This document shows, in pieces, positions 7,108 to 19,056 of a stretch of DNA of 45,480 nt. A program made the translations under genes and the position numbers. This DNA is from a bacterium (GTDB lineage: Bacteria > Bacteroidota > Ignavibacteria > SZUA-365). Each line of letters opens with the position of its first letter. Position 1 is the first letter of the stretch. Below the pieces are notes generated by a model. That model was not told the DNA's origin and made no database searches. It saw only the letters and a program-made list of their open reading frames with translations. Location: contig JAHLLD010000019.1 in the NCBI GenBank assembly GCA_020444325.1, positions 1 to 45,480 of the forward strand, given 5' to 3'.

Positions 7108-9777
7108 CTATTTCAGAACCACCATCTTCCGCGTCTGCTTCGCATTGTCTGCGGTCAACTCGTAGAGATATAGGCCGCTGCGCAATCCCGAAGCATCGAC
7201 GCGCAGCTGATGCGTTCCAGCGTCACGCCACTCGTCGAGCAATGTCTGCAAGAGCTTGCCATCACTAGTATACAGGCGCACACGTACGTGAGAAGCCTTA
7301 TCCAGAGTGAAGGGAATGACGCTCGTGGGATTAAAGGGGTTCGGGTAATTCTGTCCGAGAGAAAACGAAAGCGGTGGCTGGGCTTCATCATCCACGGAGA
7401 CAATGGCCGATGTCCGCCACATGCCGCGGCCATGTGTGGCAGCGTAAAGGATATCGTCGGGGGTGATTTTCAGGTCGTCGATAACCACGTTCGGGAGTCC
7501 TTCGCCGAAGGGATACCAGTTGCGGCCGGCGTCCCTGCTGACGAACACGCCGAGATCCGTACCCACGTACACGACGTTGGGGTGCTTTTCCCAGATAGTG
7601 ATGGCACCGACAGGAATTTCAGGCAGCTGGGTTTCCTCCGTCTCGCCCTTCATGAATTCCCAGGTCTGACCGTAATCCGTCGTTTTGTACACGCCGGTAA
7701 CAGCGCTGAACGCCGCGGTTCCGACATAGGCGATGTTCGGCTCCGTGGGATGCACTTCGATATCGGCGAGGAAGAGATTCGGGAGGCCGTCATCGATACG
7801 TTCCCAGGTGATCTCACTGGTGTCTGCCATCACGTTTGTCGACACCCAGGCGGTACTCGAATATCCGGTGACGCCGTAAAGGACGTCAGGATTCGTCGGA
7901 CACTGCGAGAGGTCCTGGAATTGTGAAAGGGAGCTGCGTGAGCCTGTGAGGTCATCAGAGATGGGAATCCAATCCTGCGCCCCGTTGGTGGTGCGGTACA
8001 TGCGGTTGCCGCCGGTGAACAACGTCTTCGGCTGCGTCGGATGCATGATAAATGGCGTCACAAAACTGAAGAGGTAGTTGCCGTTGCTGTCCGTGCGGTC
8101 GAGACCGGAGCGCGCGGAACGGAACGACTGTCCCCCGTTGGTGGTCCTGGCGATGTTGCCGTACTGCGATGTGATGTAGAACACATCGCTGTCTTCGTAG
8201 TCGAATGCGACATAGCCTCCGTCACCGCCCCAGCTCAGGCGTTCCCATTCCCCTGTTGTCGCACTGCCGAGGTTGTTCCGCCGGTCCTGCGTCCCGCCCG
8301 CAACACGCGTCGGATCCTGACGGTCGAAGTCCATCGCATAGAACTGCATGGTTCCCAGGCCGACGTTGATTTCCTCGAACAGAGGCGAAGAACGTCTGCA
8401 ATCCTCGGTACGGAACAATCCCCCGTCACTCGCGACGATCATGACGTCAGGGTCGGTGGGACTGAAATCCGCATAATGCATATCCACCCAGGCGGCGCTC
8501 AGGCCGGTCTGCTTCGTGATCTGCGTAAAGGTTTTCCCGAAATCCGTACTGCGCCAGCTGTGAATGCCGCCAATAAAAATTGTGTTTGGATCAGTTGGAT
8601 GAAAACGCACATACAGATTGTAATCGCCCTGCGAACGAAGGATTTCCCGCATGTTCGATTGGTCGCTTCCTTCCGTGCGCTCCCAGGTCACACCATAATC
8701 GGTGCTTACATAAACGCCATAGAAGTCCTGCCGCTCGGTGGGACTCACATTGGGGACCCGCTGCATGACGGCGACAAGGGTACCGGGCTGCGAAAGGCTG
8801 GCATCCATGACGATATTCCCCGTGCTGTCAGGGGGTGGAAAGCTCTCATCGAGTATCTTGTTGAACGTCCAGCGATTGCCTTTCTGTTCAGAGACATACA
8901 GGCCGTTACTGCTCTGTCCCCCGCGATACCCCATAGCCACATACACCCGGTCGGGATTACTCGGATCCAGGATGACATCACGGACATAGCCATTAAGCAC
9001 TGTCGTCCAGCTCTCGCCGCCGTCAGTACTGCGCATGAGTCCACCGGAGGCGCCACCAAACGTTGCGGCGGCGTAAATATAATCAGAGTTCTCAGGATGC
9101 AGTTCCACGTGATTGATGGCGAAATCCTGTTCATTGATTTCGTCCAGCATCAGGTTGACCCAGTTGTGTCCGCCATCGGTACTGCGGTACAGTCCATCTC
9201 CATACACCTTGTCCCAGTTAAACGATCCTTCCCCCGTCCCGATGTAGATGTGCTCGGGATTGTTCCTGTCTATTGCCATGTGTCCGATCGACAGGGTGGG
9301 CAGACTGTCAGACATGGCCGTCCAGTGCGCACCGCCATCGGTGGATTTGAATACACCGCCGGATGCGGACCCAGCATAAATGATGGAGGGATTCGTTGGG
9401 TGGAATTTCACAACGCGGATGCGTCCCCCGATATCGTTGGGTCCGATGAAACTCCAGACATTGCCGATGCTGGCTTTTCTGAACGCGTTGGAATGACGCT
9501 GCTGCATGATATGTCGGCTGCCCTGACGCAGTCCCGCCGAGATACTTCTGTCGGCATTCCAGGTACGCGGGAGGAAATACCAGTCGAGATGCGGCACTTC
9601 GCCAATGGAACCTGCATCCGACGCCTCTCTCTGTTCCGCTTTTCTCTCCAGCTTCCGTGCACGATCGGTTGACATCAACGCTTCACCATCAAAGCGGGAC
9701 GGCAGCACATGCAATGCGCCCATGCCGAACGCGGCAAAAACACCTAAAACAACAATGCGAGGAACAATTTTCAGCAT
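7108..9777 (-). CDS. Sortilin-like (VPS10/BNR) beta-propeller protein with T9SS sorting domain
   Basis: This 889-residue secreted protein has an N-terminal signal segment (MLKIVPRIVVLGVFAAFG). It carries many Asp-box/BNR-type repeats of the form S(T/R)DGGxxW, for example KSTDGGAHW, RSTDGGHNW and KTTDYGQTW. These are spaced through the protein as in ten-bladed sortilin propellers. The last ~85 residues are a T9SS type A sorting domain starting near NYPNPFNPTS and ending in MVVLK. No sialidase catalytic signature was recognised, so a binding or structural role is more likely than glycosidase activity. The ATG at 9777 is preferred to an in-frame GTG at 9786 because AAGGTG lies six bases before it. 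The gene appears monocistronic. Confidence 0.85.
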   Translation of the reverse strand: MLKIVPRIVVLGVFAAFGMGALHVLPSRFDGEALMSTDRARKLERKAEQREASDAGSIGEVPHLDWYFLPRTWNADRSISAGLRQGSRHIMQQRHSNAFRKASIGNVWSFIGPNDIGGRIRVVKFHPTNPSIIYAGSASGGVFKSTDGGAHWTAMSDSLPTLSIGHMAIDRNNPEHIYIGTGEGSFNWDKVYGDGLYRSTDGGHNWVNLMLDEINEQDFAINHVELHPENSDYIYAAATFGGASGGLMRSTDGGESWTTVLNGYVRDVILDPSNPDRVYVAMGYRGGQSSNGLYVSEQKGNRWTFNKILDESFPPPDSTGNIVMDASLSQPGTLVAVMQRVPNVSPTERQDFYGVYVSTDYGVTWERTEGSDQSNMREILRSQGDYNLYVRFHPTDPNTIFIGGIHSWRSTDFGKTFTQITKQTGLSAAWVDMHYADFSPTDPDVMIVASDGGLFRTEDCRRSSPLFEEINVGLGTMQFYAMDFDRQDPTRVAGGTQDRRNNLGSATTGEWERLSWGGDGGYVAFDYEDSDVFYITSQYGNIARTTNGGQSFRSARSGLDRTDSNGNYLFSFVTPFIMHPTQPKTLFTGGNRMYRTTNGAQDWIPISDDLTGSRSSLSQFQDLSQCPTNPDVLYGVTGYSSTAWVSTNVMADTSEITWERIDDGLPNLFLADIEVHPTEPNIAYVGTAAFSAVTGVYKTTDYGQTWEFMKGETEETQLPEIPVGAITIWEKHPNVVYVGTDLGVFVSRDAGRNWYPFGEGLPNVVIDDLKITPDDILYAATHGRGMWRTSAIVSVDDEAQPPLSFSLGQNYPNPFNPTSVIPFTLDKASHVRVRLYTSDGKLLQTLLDEWRDAGTHQLRVDASGLRSGLYLYELTADNAKQTRKMVVLK

Positions 9778-9836
9778 ACAATACACCTTAAAAACGCTTG
9801 TAACTCACCGAACACCTGATTCAGAGTCCGGTGTTT

Positions 9837-12366: not shown

Positions 12367-13476
12367 TCAGAGCAGACCATCCAGCATGGTCAGGAAGCTT
12401 TCCTTCTCCCTGCTCCATTGAAAGATATCGGCATGTTCCCGGCAGCGCGCCCTGAGCACCTGGTAGTATTCGGTGTCATCGAGCAGTCGCGTGACCTGCT
12501 GTGCAAGCGCCTGCGCATCCCCTGCCGCCACAGGGACGCCCGTGCCGCTGTCTCGAAGGACCCTTCCGATTTCCGGAAAATCACTGCCAAGAACGGGCAC
12601 ACCGGCGGCGATGTACTCAAACAGCTTGTTCGGCAGACTCAGGTAATAGCTGCGTCCGAGGTTCTCAATCATGCATAGGCCGAGATCGGCGGAAGCGGTC
12701 CACTCGAGTACTTCACGGCTCGGTACGGCGGATTTGATATGCACACGGTCTGCGATCCCGAGTTCGTGCGCGGTTGATTCGATTTCCGCTGCGAGTGGAC
12801 CATCCCCGAGAAATACCAGGGCAACAGACGGCAGTTCCGCCAGCGCACGGACACAGAGCAGGGCTCCGCGTCCCTTCTGCAATCCTCCCTGCGAAAGCAG
12901 TACAGGGATGTTCTCAGGGATACCGAACTCCGTTCGCAAAAGCGCGGTACGTTTCTCCACCCGGCGATCCGGGTAATTGTGAAACACGTGAACAGGGCTG
13001 TATTCCGCTGCAAGAACCTCAGCGATGGCGGCATTTACGGTGAGGACGGCATCGGCGCGGCGCGCATACCGTTTCTCGAGAAGCGTCCAGAAGCGCTGCG
13101 TCACTTCGCGTCCCTCAAGGGCAGCGATGGCGCGATACAGCTCTCTCGCATCATAGACCAGCTTCGCCCCACTCTTTCGCGCCAGCCGCGCCGCAAGGGG
13201 AAGCGAATAAAGATCCGCTGCCACGCAGATATCAGGAGTAGTTGCTGCGAGAATATTTCCAGCGGTACGCCAGAAACCCGGCAGCGCCGCTCTCAGCGAA
13301 CCGCTGCGTTGTGTGGGATAAATGCGTGTGTCAGGAAGTGCTGCACTGGGATCTGCACTGAGAACCGCAATATGTACATCACCAAGCGCAATTGCCGCTT
13401 CGGCGAAGCGGCGCAGACGGGAATCACGTGTAACGTTTCCCACGAAGGTGAAACAGATCTGCGGCCGCGTGGACAT
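12367..13476 (-). CDS. Family 4 (GT-B) glycosyltransferase
   Basis: This 369-residue cytoplasmic or membrane-associated GT-B enzyme has an N-terminal acceptor domain (KLVYDARELY segment). Its C-terminal donor domain contains LSQGGLQKGRG and the nucleotide-sugar signature NKLFEYIAAGVPVLGSDFPE, with the E-x7-E type arrangement of GT4 retaining enzymes. Donor and acceptor sugars cannot be told from sequence. It is last in an operon after a lipoprotein, a T9SS cargo and two PorV-like proteins, six nt downstream of the second barrel. It may therefore modify the surface glycan or LPS to which T9SS cargo is attached (inference). Confidence 0.85.
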   Translation of the reverse strand: MSTRPQICFTFVGNVTRDSRLRRFAEAAIALGDVHIAVLSADPSAALPDTRIYPTQRSGSLRAALPGFWRTAGNILAATTPDICVAADLYSLPLAARLARKSGAKLVYDARELYRAIAALEGREVTQRFWTLLEKRYARRADAVLTVNAAIAEVLAAEYSPVHVFHNYPDRRVEKRTALLRTEFGIPENIPVLLSQGGLQKGRGALLCVRALAELPSVALVFLGDGPLAAEIESTAHELGIADRVHIKSAVPSREVLEWTASADLGLCMIENLGRSYYLSLPNKLFEYIAAGVPVLGSDFPEIGRVLRDSGTGVPVAAGDAQALAQQVTRLLDDTEYYQVLRARCREHADIFQWSREKESFLTMLDGLL

Positions 13477-13482
13477 GCTGCA

Positions 13483-14403
13483 TCAGAAAAGAATGGCGAG
13501 GGCGATGGTATGCGCGTCTCCAAAGCTGTCGCTCCACGGAACGTACGCGTAGTCAAAACGGAGCGAACTGTATCGGGCGCCCGCACCGAAGCTGATATCC
13601 TTGTTGTCATAACCGCTCAGATATCCCATGCGAATGAAAACCATATCGACATAGTCGAACTCGACACCGATACTGGCATGCGTGGTTTCTTCCTCGAGCA
13701 GGCTCAGTCCCGAAATCTCAACATTCAATGCGCTCTTAAGCGCGTTGATGGGAATCATGTAGCCTGCACCGTAACGGAGCAGCATCGGAAGTGTAGTCTC
13801 CTGCGCATTGAGCGCATTCATGCTGCCGACATTGGAAAGTGCGAGACCAAATCGGAGCTGCTCGAGATCCTCATCCTCGAAAGGTCTCGCGGAAATGCCG
13901 AAATCAAGGCCGTACCCGGAGGCATCATCCACATGAATTTTCTCGAAGAGATACTTGAGGTTCATTCCGAAATCGATCCCATCTGTCAGTGCAAAGGCGG
14001 CGGACACGCCTGCGGCGAGATTCTGTGATTCGAAAACACCGTCGGGCTCGAGCGACGGCGTGTCGCGCAGTTCGATGCCTGGGACGGAAGTAATACCGAA
14101 AAACACACCGAATGACCAGCTCTGTGCCGGAAGTGCTATGCCGACATACTCGGTGGTGATGTCCTGCACCCACTCCGTATGTTCGATGGAAATCGATGCC
14201 GCCTCGTCGTCAGCAAGAAGGGCCGGATTGTAATACGATGCGGCTCCCTCCTTTGCGGAGACGACACCGGTACTGCCCATCGCCACGTTTCGTGCGCCGA
14301 CACCGTTTTTCAGGAAGGAAAGTCCCGCCTTGCCGGATTGCGCCATCAGCATGGACGGCATGAGAAGGAAAAGGAAAAGCGTGACGGGTAAAATGCGCTG
14401 CAT
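13483..14403 (-). CDS. PorV/PorQ-family outer-membrane protein (second of pair)
   Basis: This 306-residue protein has a signal peptide (MQRILPVTLFLFLLMPSMLMAQ). Right after it comes the family's N-terminal pattern: GAGFL-like GLSFLKNGVGARNVAMG and AASYYNPALL. Alternating hydrophobic strands suit a 14-stranded FadL-like barrel, and the chain ends in a C-terminal phenylalanine typical of barrels. PorV shuttles T9SS cargo from the translocon to the attachment complex. This copy lies next to a cargo gene rather than T9SS core genes, so it may be a dedicated paralogue. It sits 20 nt downstream of a related barrel gene. Confidence 0.8.
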   Translation of the reverse strand: MQRILPVTLFLFLLMPSMLMAQSGKAGLSFLKNGVGARNVAMGSTGVVSAKEGAASYYNPALLADDEAASISIEHTEWVQDITTEYVGIALPAQSWSFGVFFGITSVPGIELRDTPSLEPDGVFESQNLAAGVSAAFALTDGIDFGMNLKYLFEKIHVDDASGYGLDFGISARPFEDEDLEQLRFGLALSNVGSMNALNAQETTLPMLLRYGAGYMIPINALKSALNVEISGLSLLEEETTHASIGVEFDYVDMVFIRMGYLSGYDNKDISFGAGARYSSLRFDYAYVPWSDSFGDAHTIALAILF

Positions 14404-14423
14404 AACAGGTACCGTGCTCGTTT

Positions 14424-15452
14424 TCAGAAGTGCAGGGCGAAGGAAAGCACATGCGTTGATGAAGGGGCCACTGGCTCGAGAACAAAGGCGTAGTGTATGA
14501 CTGGCTGCATGTTCGCAACAGGCTGTGCGATGGAGAATCCGAATGAAGGACGCGGGTCAATGCCGGCATCAGACAGATCGATACGCTCCACACCGCCACG
14601 CAGCCAGATATTCTCGACGACAGGGATTTCATAGCCGAGGCGTACAAGATACACATCCCCGTCGACCTGCTCCACCTCCGCGGCAGCCAGTCCGTAATCC
14701 GACGGCAGCGTATACCCGACACCGAGCCGGAAAATACGGGCGAACGGATCCTCCGTTGTGTTGCCACGTTCCGCACCGTAGAGATCGCTGGTATCCCACT
14801 TGTACTTCGTCAGCAGTTCCTGGGCCACGAGCGCGATACGGATGGATGGTGAGACGGTATACAACGCGCCGATGTCAACACCGAAACCGGAAGACGTCAC
14901 GCCCTCATACACGCCGCTGTAATAGAACTTCGCGTTGAAGCCCACCGCAAGCTTGTCGGAGAAGCGGGTGCCGAAATTGACGGCAAACTGATTTTCGAAG
15001 ACACTGAGCATATCCGTTTTGAAGCCGTCGCTGTCATATCCCTGAATTTCACTGTCGCCCGCGTTGATCCACGTGACGGACACACCGGAAATGGACTGCA
15101 CCCCGGGTTCGTCAGCGTAGATATTGGCTTCCTTGTTGTAGATGCGGATGGTCTGCGTGTAGCTGACCTGGTTGAAGGCGCGGTCGAGTGCGAGGAAACC
15201 GTAACTGCCATGCAGTACGTGTCCCTCCTGGAATGCGCTGAGGGCGGGATTGTAGTACGTGGATATCGTTCCACTGTTGACCGTCGACAGAGCGTTGCCC
15301 ATGCCTTGTCCCCGGGCGCCGAATCCCATGCGCGTGAATGCGCCGGCAGTACCGTTCTGCGCGGACAGTGTCAGCGGCATGAATGCTGCACACAGGATCA
15401 GGATGAACAGTGTTCGTGTTGCGCGTGTAACCATGTGCGATTTTCCTGTCAT
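14424..15452 (-). CDS. PorV/PorQ-family outer-membrane protein (first of pair)
   Basis: This 342-residue protein has a signal peptide ending near LSAQ. The conserved block follows: FTRMGFGARGQGMGNALS and STYYNPALSAF. Amphipathic beta strands and a C-terminal phenylalanine (LSFALHF) predict an outer-membrane barrel. It is related to, but clearly different from, the next gene, so the two are old paralogues. The start at 15452 overlaps the stop of the upstream beta-propeller cargo gene (ATGA), which implies coupled translation of cargo and barrel. An alternative ATG lies at 15434, and signal-peptide length is reasonable from either. Confidence 0.8.
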   Translation of the reverse strand: MTGKSHMVTRATRTLFILILCAAFMPLTLSAQNGTAGAFTRMGFGARGQGMGNALSTVNSGTISTYYNPALSAFQEGHVLHGSYGFLALDRAFNQVSYTQTIRIYNKEANIYADEPGVQSISGVSVTWINAGDSEIQGYDSDGFKTDMLSVFENQFAVNFGTRFSDKLAVGFNAKFYYSGVYEGVTSSGFGVDIGALYTVSPSIRIALVAQELLTKYKWDTSDLYGAERGNTTEDPFARIFRLGVGYTLPSDYGLAAAEVEQVDGDVYLVRLGYEIPVVENIWLRGGVERIDLSDAGIDPRPSFGFSIAQPVANMQPVIHYAFVLEPVAPSSTHVLSFALHF

Positions 15453-17017
15453 TGCAGCACCACCACCTTGGTCCAGTGCGGATCGCCGGAACCATTGTCG
15501 ACTTCAATGTAATAGACGCCATTCGCGGCACGGTCACCGGCGTCGGTGCGGCCGTCCCACACTTCATCGTGCTCTACTCCTGTCGAACGCGCGGCATTAC
15601 GCAGCAACGTACGCACTGGCATCATGGCGAAATCGTAGATGCGGATGGAAACGCTCCCGCTTTCCGTTTTGTAATGCACGCGACATACTTCGTCGTCCGG
15701 AGCAAAGGGATTCGGGTAGGCATACACTTCTTCGGCGGATTCAAGTGGCTGCGCCGCTCGCAGGATGGTCCACTGCGTTCCAAAAAACGTGGCGGCGTTA
15801 TCCGTGGTCTTCATCAGTCCGTCGCCGTTGGCTACCCATACCACATCCCCCACTGCTGCCGCGGAGAAACAGCGTTCATCGGCTGCCACCTGGCGGCTTC
15901 GGCTGTCAACGAAGCGTGAAAAACCGATCCAGCTTTTTCCACCGTCGTCGCTTCTGTAGATTCCGGAATTCGTAGGGGCATACACGACTTCGTCCCTGAA
16001 GCCGAAGTTGTGCGTGAATTCACCGCGAAGTGTCGTGTTCCACGTTTCACCCATATCGGTCGAATAGCTTACGGCACGGAATTCAATCGGATTCAGTGCG
16101 TTGATGGTCGAAGCCCAGATATAGCGGGTGCCGTCGACCATATTGTCGCCCAGCGCAACAACGAAATTTCCGCTGATGGGCTGCAGCTGATTATTGAAGG
16201 AAAACTTTCGCCAGGAAATCCCGCCGTCCGTGCTCAGATTGACCCCGCCCGCGGTGCCGACAAGAATGCTGTCGTCACTCATGGCGTGGACAGAGAAGAC
16301 GCGATGGTTAAGATTTTCGCGCAGGCCGAGGTCGGGACGACTCACGGGCGAAAGTTCGAAATCCAGTGTGTCGTCTGGTGCGATATCATCAAGTGCGTCC
16401 GGCGGAAGGACGACAGGCTCGAAACTTGCGCCGCCGTCGGTGGATTTTCGCAGTCCCCCTGCGAAACTGGCGATGAACACCGCTTTGCTGGTCACTGCGA
16501 TATCGTAAGTGATATTATTGATAGGCGTCGTCACTGCCAGGGCGGGAATCGTGTTTACCCCATACGTGATGTCGTACACGGACATATCCTCCGCTTCCAT
16601 CGGCTGGTCAATGTGTTCCCAGGTCTGCCCGTTGTCCGTTGACCGTGCCAGACCGAGTCCTACCGGCAGCGCGCCGTCCTGGCTGTCCTCTGATCCCGCA
16701 AGCGAAGCCCAGAAGGTGGAGCCATAGGCCTCGAGTGCGGCAATGTCTTCGGCATCGAACGGGGCGTCCTGACCGAAATGCGTCCAGTTGTTCCCGCCAT
16801 CAAAGGTGTAATCGATGCCCTTGCCACCGGCAACCCAGAGCGTGTCACCACGCACGAGCAGGTCCACCGCGGAGTTGCTCAGGGGACGATCGGATTGCGT
16901 GCTGCCGGATTTCTGCATTGTGAATTGTGCGGGACGCTCCTGTGCCCGGCTGCTGACAGCTGCGAGCAGCAGTATCGCTGCGAACAGGACTCCCTTTCTA
17001 AAACTGACTGTGTGCAT
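15449..17017 (-). CDS. Beta-propeller (BNR-repeat) protein with T9SS/FlgD-like C-terminal domain
   Basis: This 522-residue exported protein has a signal peptide (FAAILLLAAVSSRAQ). At least five BNR/Asp-box motifs are visible, such as YTFDGGNNW, RSTDNGQTW, KSTDGGASF, LSTDGGISW and RSDDGGKSW, predicting a propeller. The last ~90 residues, beginning at VYAYPNPFAPDDE, form a FlgD-Ig/T9SS-type sorting domain ending in KVVVLQ. It overlaps the preceding lipoprotein gene by one base (TGATG) and the following barrel gene by four. Such tight packing suggests a functional surface unit. No catalytic residues were recognised. Confidence 0.8.
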   Translation of the reverse strand: MHTVSFRKGVLFAAILLLAAVSSRAQERPAQFTMQKSGSTQSDRPLSNSAVDLLVRGDTLWVAGGKGIDYTFDGGNNWTHFGQDAPFDAEDIAALEAYGSTFWASLAGSEDSQDGALPVGLGLARSTDNGQTWEHIDQPMEAEDMSVYDITYGVNTIPALAVTTPINNITYDIAVTSKAVFIASFAGGLRKSTDGGASFEPVVLPPDALDDIAPDDTLDFELSPVSRPDLGLRENLNHRVFSVHAMSDDSILVGTAGGVNLSTDGGISWRKFSFNNQLQPISGNFVVALGDNMVDGTRYIWASTINALNPIEFRAVSYSTDMGETWNTTLRGEFTHNFGFRDEVVYAPTNSGIYRSDDGGKSWIGFSRFVDSRSRQVAADERCFSAAAVGDVVWVANGDGLMKTTDNAATFFGTQWTILRAAQPLESAEEVYAYPNPFAPDDEVCRVHYKTESGSVSIRIYDFAMMPVRTLLRNAARSTGVEHDEVWDGRTDAGDRAANGVYYIEVDNGSGDPHWTKVVVLQ

Positions 17018-17841
17018 CAGTATACGATGATCTTGTGAATGATGACGTTGCTCACGGCATTGGAGTAATCCACGGCACGGATCTGGAACTCGTATTCACC
17101 CTTCTGCGCCGTCGGCGGCAGGATGAAACGGCGGGAATACCAACCGTCACCGGCGACTTCATCTCCCTGCGCGGCTACACCCTGATCCCATAGGATGAAG
17201 GGATTGCCGTTCGCAGCACTCTTGTCGGGCAGAAAACTGCTGAGAACCACTTGTTTGATATCCTTGAGTCCACTTGCATCCTGCACGAGGACGCTGACAT
17301 CGAGCGTCGTGGTGTCGGCTTCCAGCTGCACAGAATCAGGAGCATGAATGTCAACAAGTTCAGGAGGATTGCTGCCGTATATCACGCGCAGTGTCGCGAA
17401 GGCGCTTGCGGCCTCCGCCCCGTTTGCATCCAGACCACTGATTTCGACGCGGTAGTCCCCGACATCGCCGCGACTGAGTTCGAGGTCGAAGTCGAAGGCC
17501 TGCAGTCCCTCAGCCGGGTTGTCGATGCTGCTGGTGAACACGGGGGTGATAGACCCGTTCTGCGTCACCGTGCAGCGCAGGGAGACGGCTTCGCCCGTCG
17601 CCGTGGGACGCCGGACCTGGACACCCACATGCAGCGGAATGGTCACCGGGTCATCAGGCGACTTGTCCTGGTTCGGGATCACATCGACCGTATCCGTATC
17701 TACAAGGAAATCGGATAACTCAAGGTCAGTAAACACGATAGGAGGATCAGTAAGAGTGGGATCAAGCGTACTGTCATCTTCGCTGCAACCTGCGGCGAGC
17801 GTCAGCACGAGCAGAAGAGGGAGAAATCGTTTCAGGCTCAT
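17017..17841 (-). CDS. Exported lipoprotein with Ig-like domains
   Basis: This 274-residue protein has a clear lipoprotein signal, LTLAAGC, with the lipidated cysteine at residue 19. A flexible acidic stretch follows. Two beta-rich Ig-like regions come next, the second containing GDGWYSRRFILPPTAQKGEYEFQIRAVD, a pattern common in Bacteroidota Ig/cohesin-type stalks. It is the first gene of the operon with a T9SS cargo, two PorV-like barrels and a glycosyltransferase, and probably sits in the outer membrane with them. No enzyme family was recognised. Confidence 0.75.
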   Translation of the reverse strand: MSLKRFLPLLLVLTLAAGCSEDDSTLDPTLTDPPIVFTDLELSDFLVDTDTVDVIPNQDKSPDDPVTIPLHVGVQVRRPTATGEAVSLRCTVTQNGSITPVFTSSIDNPAEGLQAFDFDLELSRGDVGDYRVEISGLDANGAEAASAFATLRVIYGSNPPELVDIHAPDSVQLEADTTTLDVSVLVQDASGLKDIKQVVLSSFLPDKSAANGNPFILWDQGVAAQGDEVAGDGWYSRRFILPPTAQKGEYEFQIRAVDYSNAVSNVIIHKIIVY

Positions 17842-17877
17842 GGGCTGGATATTCCTGTTTGAAATCCCGTGTAATGA

Positions 17878-17912
17878 AGCCGGGGCATGTCACAATTGAC
17901 CATGCCCCGGCT
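17878..17912 (-). promoter_or_regulatory. Leader hairpin of the surface operon
   Basis: A perfect 12-bp GC-rich stem (17878-17889 with 17901-17912) continues, after one bulged base, into 3 more pairs around a 4-nt loop. It lies downstream of the predicted promoter at 17940-17970 and upstream of the lipoprotein start at 17841, so it would be in the 5' leader. No U-run follows on the minus strand, which argues against a simple terminator. It may stabilise the mRNA, bind a protein or attenuate transcription. Confidence 0.6.
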
Positions 17913-17939
17913 TACGATCACACTATCAAGGAGGCAGTA

Positions 17940-18027: not shown

Positions 18028-19056
18028 TCATGCAATGAATATCGGCGCGGGAGAAAGACAGAGCAGGAACATCGCGTACGAGAACCATCCGAGCATGCGT
18101 CGACGTGGTGTAAGTTCTTGTGGATCAATGATTTCGTGATGTTTCACTTTGACCACGAACAGGATGAGCAGCGCCCAGAACAACCAGCCTGGCCAGAACC
18201 AGGCCTGGAAATTCCCGAACATCTCCATGAACGACACGGCCTCCGCCCCGAAGCCTGCGAGTTCCATCAGCGCGGGGAAAATGCCTATCCCTCCGACCAC
18301 CGCGAGCGTGACGACGGTGATGCGGCCGACAACATGCTGACGCTTCCCGAACATCGCATAGGTGATATGTCCCCCATCGAGCTGTCCCGCCGGCAGCATG
18401 TTCAGCGCCGTGACCAGCAGTCCGAACCATCCGGTCACGAGAAACGGATAGTGATACATTTCCGTCATGGGTGGGACGTAGGCACCGGGACGGCTGAACA
18501 CCTGCTCCAGGAGACTGTACAACAGGGTTTTGCCGAAGGTGAGTGTAAATCCGTCTCCCGTCCCCGCCGCTGCATGGGCGGTAAAGTCGTAGTCGGGATG
18601 AATGCTGAGCAGGAATTCATGTCCCGGGAGCGTCATGAATCCGACCGCAAGTACGAGAATGCTGGCGATGAAACCGGCGATGGGTCCTGCGATGCCGATA
18701 TCGAACAATGCGCGCCGGGTGTGTATCGGTGAGCGTGTTCTGATCACGGCGCCCATGGTTCCGAAGTTGATGAACTGTGGCAGTGGCGGAAGCGGGATGT
18801 AGTACGGAAGCGTCACACGCACACCGTGATGACGGGCAGCGAAGTAGTGACCGAATTCATGGCAGCTCAGTATGAACAGTCCGGACAGCGCGTAAGGGAT
18901 CCCCACCCACAGGTTGGCCAGGTCGATCTGGTTCTGCCAGAGCATACCAGCGATGCTGGTTGTCAGCAGCGTGATGAGGAACAGCGCCACGTGTTTGGCG
19001 ATCTGCGCGGGACGAAGTTCAGGGGGACGAAGGGCGGCATCCGTCATATCTGACAT
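18028..19056 (-). CDS. Site-2-protease-like M50 family metalloprotease
   Basis: This 342-residue polytopic inner-membrane protein has the zinc motif HEFGH at 66-70 in a hydrophobic helix and the second catalytic motif NMLPAGQLDGGH at 219-230, both diagnostic of intramembrane M50 proteases. There is no PDZ domain, and the layout resembles the EGY/S2P-like group rather than RseP. It probably cleaves transmembrane segments of regulators or signal-peptide remnants; the substrate is unknown. AAGGA precedes the ATG. It follows the HAD phosphatase gene by 32 nt and is the last gene of a long leftward operon. Confidence 0.88.
   Translation of the reverse strand: MSDMTDAALRPPELRPAQIAKHVALFLITLLTTSIAGMLWQNQIDLANLWVGIPYALSGLFILSCHEFGHYFAARHHGVRVTLPYYIPLPPLPQFINFGTMGAVIRTRSPIHTRRALFDIGIAGPIAGFIASILVLAVGFMTLPGHEFLLSIHPDYDFTAHAAAGTGDGFTLTFGKTLLYSLLEQVFSRPGAYVPPMTEMYHYPFLVTGWFGLLVTALNMLPAGQLDGGHITYAMFGKRQHVVGRITVVTLAVVGGIGIFPALMELAGFGAEAVSFMEMFGNFQAWFWPGWLFWALLILFVVKVKHHEIIDPQELTPRRRMLGWFSYAMFLLCLSPAPIFIA

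What the first reader, a model, noticed from the sequence alone, without database searches (positions are those of the whole stretch)
12367..17841. Self-contained surface unit: lipoprotein, T9SS propeller, two PorV-like barrels, glycosyltransferase
Five genes with 1- and 4-nt overlaps or gaps of 6-20 nt encode a T9SS substrate together with two different PorV/PorQ-type proteins. PorV is normally a general shuttle encoded near T9SS core genes. Coupling a cargo to its own barrels suggests a dedicated export or attachment module, with the GT supplying the anchor glycan.
Basis: partly seen in the sequence, partly recalled or inferred. Interest (0 to 1): 0.6.

Follow-up and report, generated by a model that had tools for sequence, protein, structure and literature searches.

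The report
Surface propeller with own barrel pair
Four neighbouring genes, kept together across a large group of little-studied bacteria, appear to build a cell-surface complex in which a secreted propeller protein is held by its own pair of outer-membrane barrels instead of the usual shared carrier.

Summary
In detail: five same-strand genes with 1- and 4-nt overlaps and 20- and 6-nt gaps. Four form a conserved cassette: surface-type lipoprotein (LP), single propeller with a type IX secretion (T9SS) C-terminal domain (PROP), and two PorV-family barrels (PV1, PV2). In the class (Ignavibacteria by record titles) PROP is single-copy in 45 of 61 genomes; PV1 and PV2 follow it in 56 of 56 loci with room; PROP and PV1 presence agrees in 60 of 61 genomes. 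The genome separately encodes canonical PorU, PorV, PorQ and PorZ. PV1 and PV2 are each their own clade. PROP's best fold match is PorZ; PV1's is PorV. The glycosyltransferase is not part of the conserved unit (adjacent in 16 of 54 class loci), so the anchor-glycan idea is not supported. Barrel-cargo pairing is common here: 30 of 40 other PorV-family paralogs have a CTD gene immediately upstream (background 8 of 1004), though 28 of those cargos are one co-duplicated family. Best reading: a second PorQ-PorZ-like surface complex with a retained CTD. Binding, retention and function are inferred; PROP's own CTD is intermediate, which weakens the retention argument. New variant of a known kind.

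The parts
17017..17841 (-). LP: 274-aa lipoprotein, Ig-like; cysteine followed by S-E-D-D, like a surface lipoprotein export signal
   Evidence: the lipobox cysteine column is invariant in 27 aligned orthologs (A4); at least 2 acidic residues at +2..+7 in 21 of 26 rows where the script found a cysteine; motif compared with PMC5080379 (passages)
15449..17017 (-). PROP: 522-aa secreted protein, signal peptide, one beta-propeller (about 45-425), T9SS-type C-terminal domain (about 430-522)
   Evidence: model pLDDT 91.3; PorZ 5m11 is top Foldseek match; VIA Z 23.9, 367 residues, model 40-522 on PorZ 326-776
14424..15452 (-). PV1: 342-aa PorV/FadL-type outer-membrane barrel, own orthologous clade
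   Evidence: clade 100/100; PorV 6h3i_F Z 31.4, 281 residues
13483..14403 (-). PV2: 306-aa PorV/PorQ-family barrel, own orthologous clade
   Evidence: 144.9 bits, cut-off 90; clade 100/98; profile against PorV of 6h3i, 4.5e-27
12367..13476 (-). GT: GT4-type glycosyltransferase, last gene of the run here, optional neighbour elsewhere
   Evidence: directly adjacent in 16 of 54 class loci
18028..19056 (-). M50-family membrane peptidase, frequent upstream neighbour (47 of 56 class loci), separated here by 186 nt and a strong hairpin

Best explanation
LP, PROP, PV1 and PV2 form a conserved cell-surface complex of T9SS-bearing Ignavibacteria and some other Bacteroidota. PROP is exported by Sec and crosses the outer membrane through the T9SS using its CTD. 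It is then held at the surface by PV1 and/or PV2, two PorV-family barrels reserved for it, rather than handed by the general PorV to the PorU sortase for cleavage. This is how PorZ is held by PorQ. The surface-type lipoprotein LP is a further subunit. Shown: gene identity, conserved order, co-occurrence, fold relationships, and a complete canonical PorU/PorV/PorQ/PorZ set elsewhere in the genome. Inferred: secretion of PROP, binding to the barrels, retention of its CTD, LP on the surface, and the biological task, most likely sugar or LPS binding or surface assembly by analogy with PorZ.
For: Conserved block: PV1 and PV2 in 56 of 56 class loci with room, LP in 57 of 58. PROP single-copy in 45 of 61; PV1 in 44 of 61, presence agreeing with PROP in 60 of 61, the exception being a contig that ends in PROP. 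PROP at E<=1e-30 in 167 of 395 phylum genomes, 105 of them outside the class. Canonical PorU 957 bits, PorV 263, PorQ 254, PorZ 359, all over cut-off, elsewhere in the genome. PV1 and PV2 are separate supported clades apart from PorV and the own-genome paralogs. PROP is closest in fold to PorZ propeller 2 plus CTD; PV1 to PorV. PROP CTD matches the PorU model in 27 and the PorZ model in 13 of 32 orthologs, TIGR04183 in 8. CTD at least as conserved as the propeller over the class (0.50 vs 0.43 mean pairwise identity, 32 rows). Precedents in print: PorQ anchors PorZ and PorV anchors PorU (PMC5562754, passages); type B CTD proteins appear to stay on PorP-like barrels uncleaved (PMC9143113, passages); a review suggests cognate PorV-like barrels protect CTDs (PMC10202324, passages).
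Against: No binding, localisation or cleavage data. PROP's CTD does not group with the barrel-paired CTDs of other loci: the paired model scored higher than the unpaired one in only 2 of 32 PROPs (means 25.2 and 35.6 bits; window 25.3 and 26.2). The cassette is missing from 16 of 61 class genomes that do have PorU, so it is not a core T9SS part. Outside the class both barrels lie downstream in only 13 of 23 loci, with PV1 upstream in 4. PV1 is below the PorV family cut-off. In six related genomes PROP's CTD is slightly less conserved than its propeller (0.66 vs 0.69).
Confidence: 0.55

Rival explanations
1. PROP is an ordinary type A cargo carried by the general PorV, cleaved by PorU and released or joined to a glycolipid; PV1 and PV2 are neighbours with another job.
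For: PROP's CTD keeps a YPNPF start and the classical CTD model scores at least as well as the paired one in 30 of 32 orthologs; canonical PorU and PorV are present.
Against: Both barrels adjacent in 56 of 56 class loci with room and PROP/PV1 presence agreeing in 60 of 61 genomes; TIGR04183 matches only 8 of 32 PROPs but 33 of 33 unpaired CTDs.
Confidence: 0.2
2. The four proteins are an outer-membrane assembly or LPS-delivery accessory, comparable to the Bacteroidota BAM canopy (FadL-type barrel BamG, lipoprotein BamH, propeller lipoprotein BamI), rather than a carrier-cargo set.
For: Same kinds of parts: FadL-type barrel, surface lipoprotein, propeller (PMC12611786 and PMC12578637, passages). 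PorZ, the nearest fold of PROP, provides A-LPS to PorU (PMC10202324, passages).
Against: PV2 matches BamG at only 16.8 bits against a cut-off of 250; a better BamG candidate lies on another contig (202.9 bits, itself below cut-off). PROP carries a T9SS-type CTD, whereas BamI is a lipoprotein. PV1 and PV2 are nearest PorV.
Confidence: 0.15
3. One reading: a dedicated export and attachment module in which the glycosyltransferase supplies the anchor glycan.
For: GT follows PV2 by 6 nt here and is directly adjacent in 16 of 54 class loci.
Against: GT is not directly adjacent in 38 of 54 class loci and 20 of 22 outside; no other glycan gene is in the run.
Confidence: 0.07

Closest known systems
PorQ-PorZ half of the T9SS attachment complex (P. 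gingivalis)
   Same: Propeller protein with a T9SS CTD plus a PorV-family barrel; PorZ is the top Foldseek match of PROP
   Different: PROP has one propeller, not two; two barrels and a lipoprotein are co-encoded; the genome also has canonical PorQ and PorZ; PROP and the barrels fail the equivalog cut-offs
Type B CTD substrates with dedicated PorP/SprF shuttles (F. johnsoniae, P. gingivalis)
   Same: Cargo co-encoded with its own FadL-family barrel
   Different: Barrels are PorV/PorQ-type, not PorP/SprF-type; the CTD is not type B (TIGR04131 matched 1 of 32 PROPs)
PorU-PorV
   Same: CTD protein encoded beside its barrel; PROP's CTD matches the PorU model in 27 of 32
   Different: No sortase; PV1 and PV2 are separate clades from PorV
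Bacteroidota BAM extracellular canopy (BamG, BamH, BamI)
   Same: FadL-type barrel with surface lipoprotein and propeller
   Different: Different families, separate BamG candidate, T9SS CTD present in PROP

Membership tests
PorV/PorQ family (NF033709), PV2 | Family model over 90 bits | tested here: met
   PV2 144.9 bits; in-genome locus 143.2
PorV/PorQ family (NF033709), PV1 | Family model over 90 bits | tested here: not met
   62.5 bits, below cut-off; the fold nevertheless matches PorV 6h3i_F at Z 31.4 over 281 residues, with FadL 3pgr tied at Z 30.6, so PV1 is filed as PorV-like, not as a member by this model
PorV equivalog (NF033710) | Over 250 bits | tested here: not met
   PV2 64.1, PV1 25.6; the true PorV scores 263.3
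PorQ equivalog (NF033711) | Over 220 bits | tested here: not met
   PV2 76.7, PV1 41.6; the true PorQ scores 253.6
PorZ (NF052228) | Over 260 bits, two propellers plus CTD | tested here: not met
   PROP 27.2 bits, CTD part only; 522 aa with one propeller; true PorZ elsewhere 358.8
T9SS type A CTD (TIGR04183) | Over 23 bits | tested here: not met
   PROP 14.9 bits; 8 of 32 orthologs at E<=0.001
T9SS type B CTD (TIGR04131) | Model match | tested here: not met
   no match listed for window PROP; 1 of 32 orthologs
Retained-CTD class (as PorZ, PorU) | CTD uncleaved and bound to a barrel | not testable with these tools
   sequence hints only: PorU model 27 of 32, PorZ model 13 of 32; against: 2 of 32 with the paired-CTD model
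Surface lipoprotein export signal | Acidic residues just after the lipid cysteine | tested here: met
   window C-S-E-D-D-S; 21 of 26 orthologs with 2 or more acidic residues at +2..+7; the signal is known from other Bacteroidota (PMC5080379, passages), not tested in this class
BamG (NF053685) | Over 250 bits | tested here: not met
   PV2 16.8 bits, PV1 no listed match

The most novel reading that the evidence does not exclude
Deep-branching Bacteroidota use PorV-family barrels as a set of dedicated carrier-anchors for individual T9SS substrates, parallel to PorP/SprF for type B. The window's LP-PROP-PV1-PV2 cassette is the conserved, single-copy case: a second surface complex with two different barrels holding one uncleaved propeller.
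Probability: 0.45. Interest if true: 0.75.

Novelty: new variant of a known kind. Interest (0 to 1): 0.58.

Why it matters
A recent abstract states that type A CTDs are all recognised by PorV (PMC12618676, abstract). If PorV-family paralogs are dedicated carriers for other CTD proteins, the T9SS has many more cargo-specific routes than described, and barrel choice would decide whether a cargo is cleaved or kept. The cassette also gives a clear, conserved, unannotated target in lineages with almost no T9SS biology.

Tried and rejected
Canonical PorV, PorQ or PorZ identity for PV1, PV2 or PROP was rejected on equivalog scores. BamG identity was rejected. PROP by sequence found only generic propellers in the PDB; the profile search gave mostly propellers plus a weak hit to the PorU CTD (0.0016). 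LP has no informative solved relative (best 0.00025, a GH9 enzyme module). The idea that PROP's CTD belongs to the barrel-paired CTD class failed (2 of 32). The glycosyltransferase as a module part was rejected. Terminator-like sites across the run were not clearly above shuffles (7 against mean 5.1, sd 2.5).

Limits: the 40 paralog loci were picked by hand from the rows one search listed (more were not listed), roughly by rank, not at random. 28 of their 30 paired cargos share one body family, so they are not independent events. The CTD model used to find them included one such CTD and several PROP CTDs. The background genes came from other neighbourhoods. The cross-validation folds hold related sequences. 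One search scored only 3 candidates per genome, so copy number there is weak. Cassette loci examined: 43 of 44 non-own hits (one left out because its contig ends in PROP), plus 40 of the further hits, picked by hand.

Not in print: searches listed no paper that I recognised, by title or abstract start, as describing such a cassette or PorV-family paralogs paired with cargo in these classes. Subscription papers and preprints are not held, and only 15 of 158 hits were listed.

Full report
WHAT IS THERE. The five genes are real and tightly packed on the minus strand. They encode a lipoprotein (LP), a BNR propeller protein with a C-terminal FlgD-like/T9SS domain (PROP), two PorV-family proteins (PV1, PV2) and a GT4-type glycosyltransferase. 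Upstream, 186 nt away, ends an M50-type peptidase gene, with a strong hairpin between (17870-17925, -32.6 kcal/mol, z -6.5).

CONSERVATION. PROP has a single match in 45 of 61 genomes, the own one included (E<=1e-20). PV1 is found in 44 of the same 61, and presence agrees in 60; the one difference is a contig that ends inside PROP. In 59 class loci, PV1 and PV2 follow PROP in 56 of 56 with room, LP precedes it in 57 of 58, the M50 gene in 47 of 56, and a GT comes directly after in 16 of 54. In 24 loci from outside the class, LP is present in 22 of 23, both barrels downstream in 13 of 23, one barrel only in 5, PV1 upstream instead in 4, none in 1, and GT in 2 of 22. Across 395 phylum genomes PROP matches in 167 (E<=1e-30), 62 in the class and 105 outside (my count of its rows). 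So the conserved unit is LP-PROP-PV1-PV2, with the GT optional.

NOT THE CANONICAL SET. The genome holds PorU (957 bits), PorV (263.3, cut-off 250) and PorQ (253.6, cut-off 220) and PorZ (358.8, cut-off 260). PorU passes its cut-off in 60 of 61 relatives and PorZ in 51 of 61. Since PorU is also present in the 16 genomes without PROP, the cassette is not needed for T9SS as such. A 70-row tree puts PV1 (100/100) and PV2 (100/98) in separate clades from PorV (100/100) and from the other own-genome paralogs; the PorQ row has a long branch and its place is unsure.

FOLDS. PROP was modelled with confidence (pLDDT 91.3, pTM 0.86). The top Foldseek match is PorZ, 5m11 (6.3e-15, but TM-score only 0.34). 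VIA-align puts model residues 40-522 on PorZ 326-776, that is propeller 2 plus CTD (Z 23.9, 367 residues, rmsd 14.6, so the two domains probably sit at a different angle). Xyloglucanases score higher, mainly on the propeller (Z up to 26.5). PV1 (pLDDT 91.6) matches PorV first (6h3i_F, Z 31.4, 281 residues), with FadL proteins within 1. LP carries acidic residues after its cysteine in 21 of 26 orthologs tested, like known surface export signals (PMC5080379, passages).

A WIDER PATTERN. In 18 genomes, PorV-family matches number 6 to 24. Of 40 further paralogs, 30 have a gene ending in a T9SS-like CTD directly upstream on the same strand, against 8 of 1004 background genes with such an end. Five of the ten misses (L264, L265, L267, L275, L286) are closest to the own-genome C2 paralog, whose cluster has its CTD gene some 4 kb upstream, and two are PorQ-like. 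The paired CTDs differ from unpaired ones: the PorZ model matches 18 of 30 paired and is not listed for any of 33 unpaired, while TIGR04183 matches 5 of 30 and 33 of 33. In cross-validation 30 of 30 and 33 of 33 were assigned correctly, and 13 of 13 PorZ CTDs scored with the paired class. This hints that paired CTDs are of the PorZ kind, the kind reported as retained (PMC10202324, passages). Two cautions. First, 28 of the 30 cargos are one family that duplicated with its barrel. Second, PROP's own CTD is intermediate: the paired model wins in 2 of 32, though the PorU model, another retained CTD, matches 27 of 32.

HOW IT MOST LIKELY WORKS. Type A substrates leave the SprA translocon bound to PorV loops, and type B substrates on other carriers that then anchor them (PMC10994853, passages). 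PorQ holds PorZ and PorV holds PorU (PMC5562754, passages). By analogy PROP leaves on PV1 or PV2 and stays there with its CTD, with LP joining from the surface. Why two different barrels are needed is open: one may be the carrier and the other a permanent anchor, or they may act as a pair. PROP may bind sugar or LPS as PorZ is thought to; nothing here tests that.

VERDICT. The glycan part is not. It is a new variant of a known kind, with moderate interest that would rise if the carrier role were shown.

Noticed in passing
L091 5465-9244, L093 6559-9708, L094 10226-13507, and upstream of the barrel in L260-L297: A family of roughly 860-1300-aa CTD proteins directly upstream of PorV-family paralogs, repeated within genomes. 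Five tested (L283, L271, L260, L091, L093) have no Pfam match; 28 of 30 paired cargos plus three own-genome ones share one body family.
   Followed up: partly
L089 5454-14243: Canonical PorU-PorV pair of this genome beside an M6-like T9SS protein.
   Followed up: yes
window 17870-17925: Very stable hairpin (z -6.5) between the M50 peptidase gene and LP, without a clear T-run; terminator or leader element.
   Followed up: no
window 7108-9786: 892-aa sortilin/BNR propeller protein with a classical type A CTD (TIGR04183 37.4 bits); a useful contrast to PROP. Its CTD is less conserved than PROP's in six genomes (0.44 vs 0.66).
   Followed up: partly
G017, G020, G024, G027, G030, G033, G036, G039, G042, G045, G048, G051, G054, G057, G060 (families f5, f8, f12, f16, f17): Class members with PorU but with neither PROP nor PV1; their PorU scores are lower than those of most cassette carriers.
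   Followed up: no
window 18028-19056: M50-family peptidase conserved upstream of the cassette in 47 of 56 class loci and 10 of 23 outside; a functional link is possible but untested.
   Followed up: no
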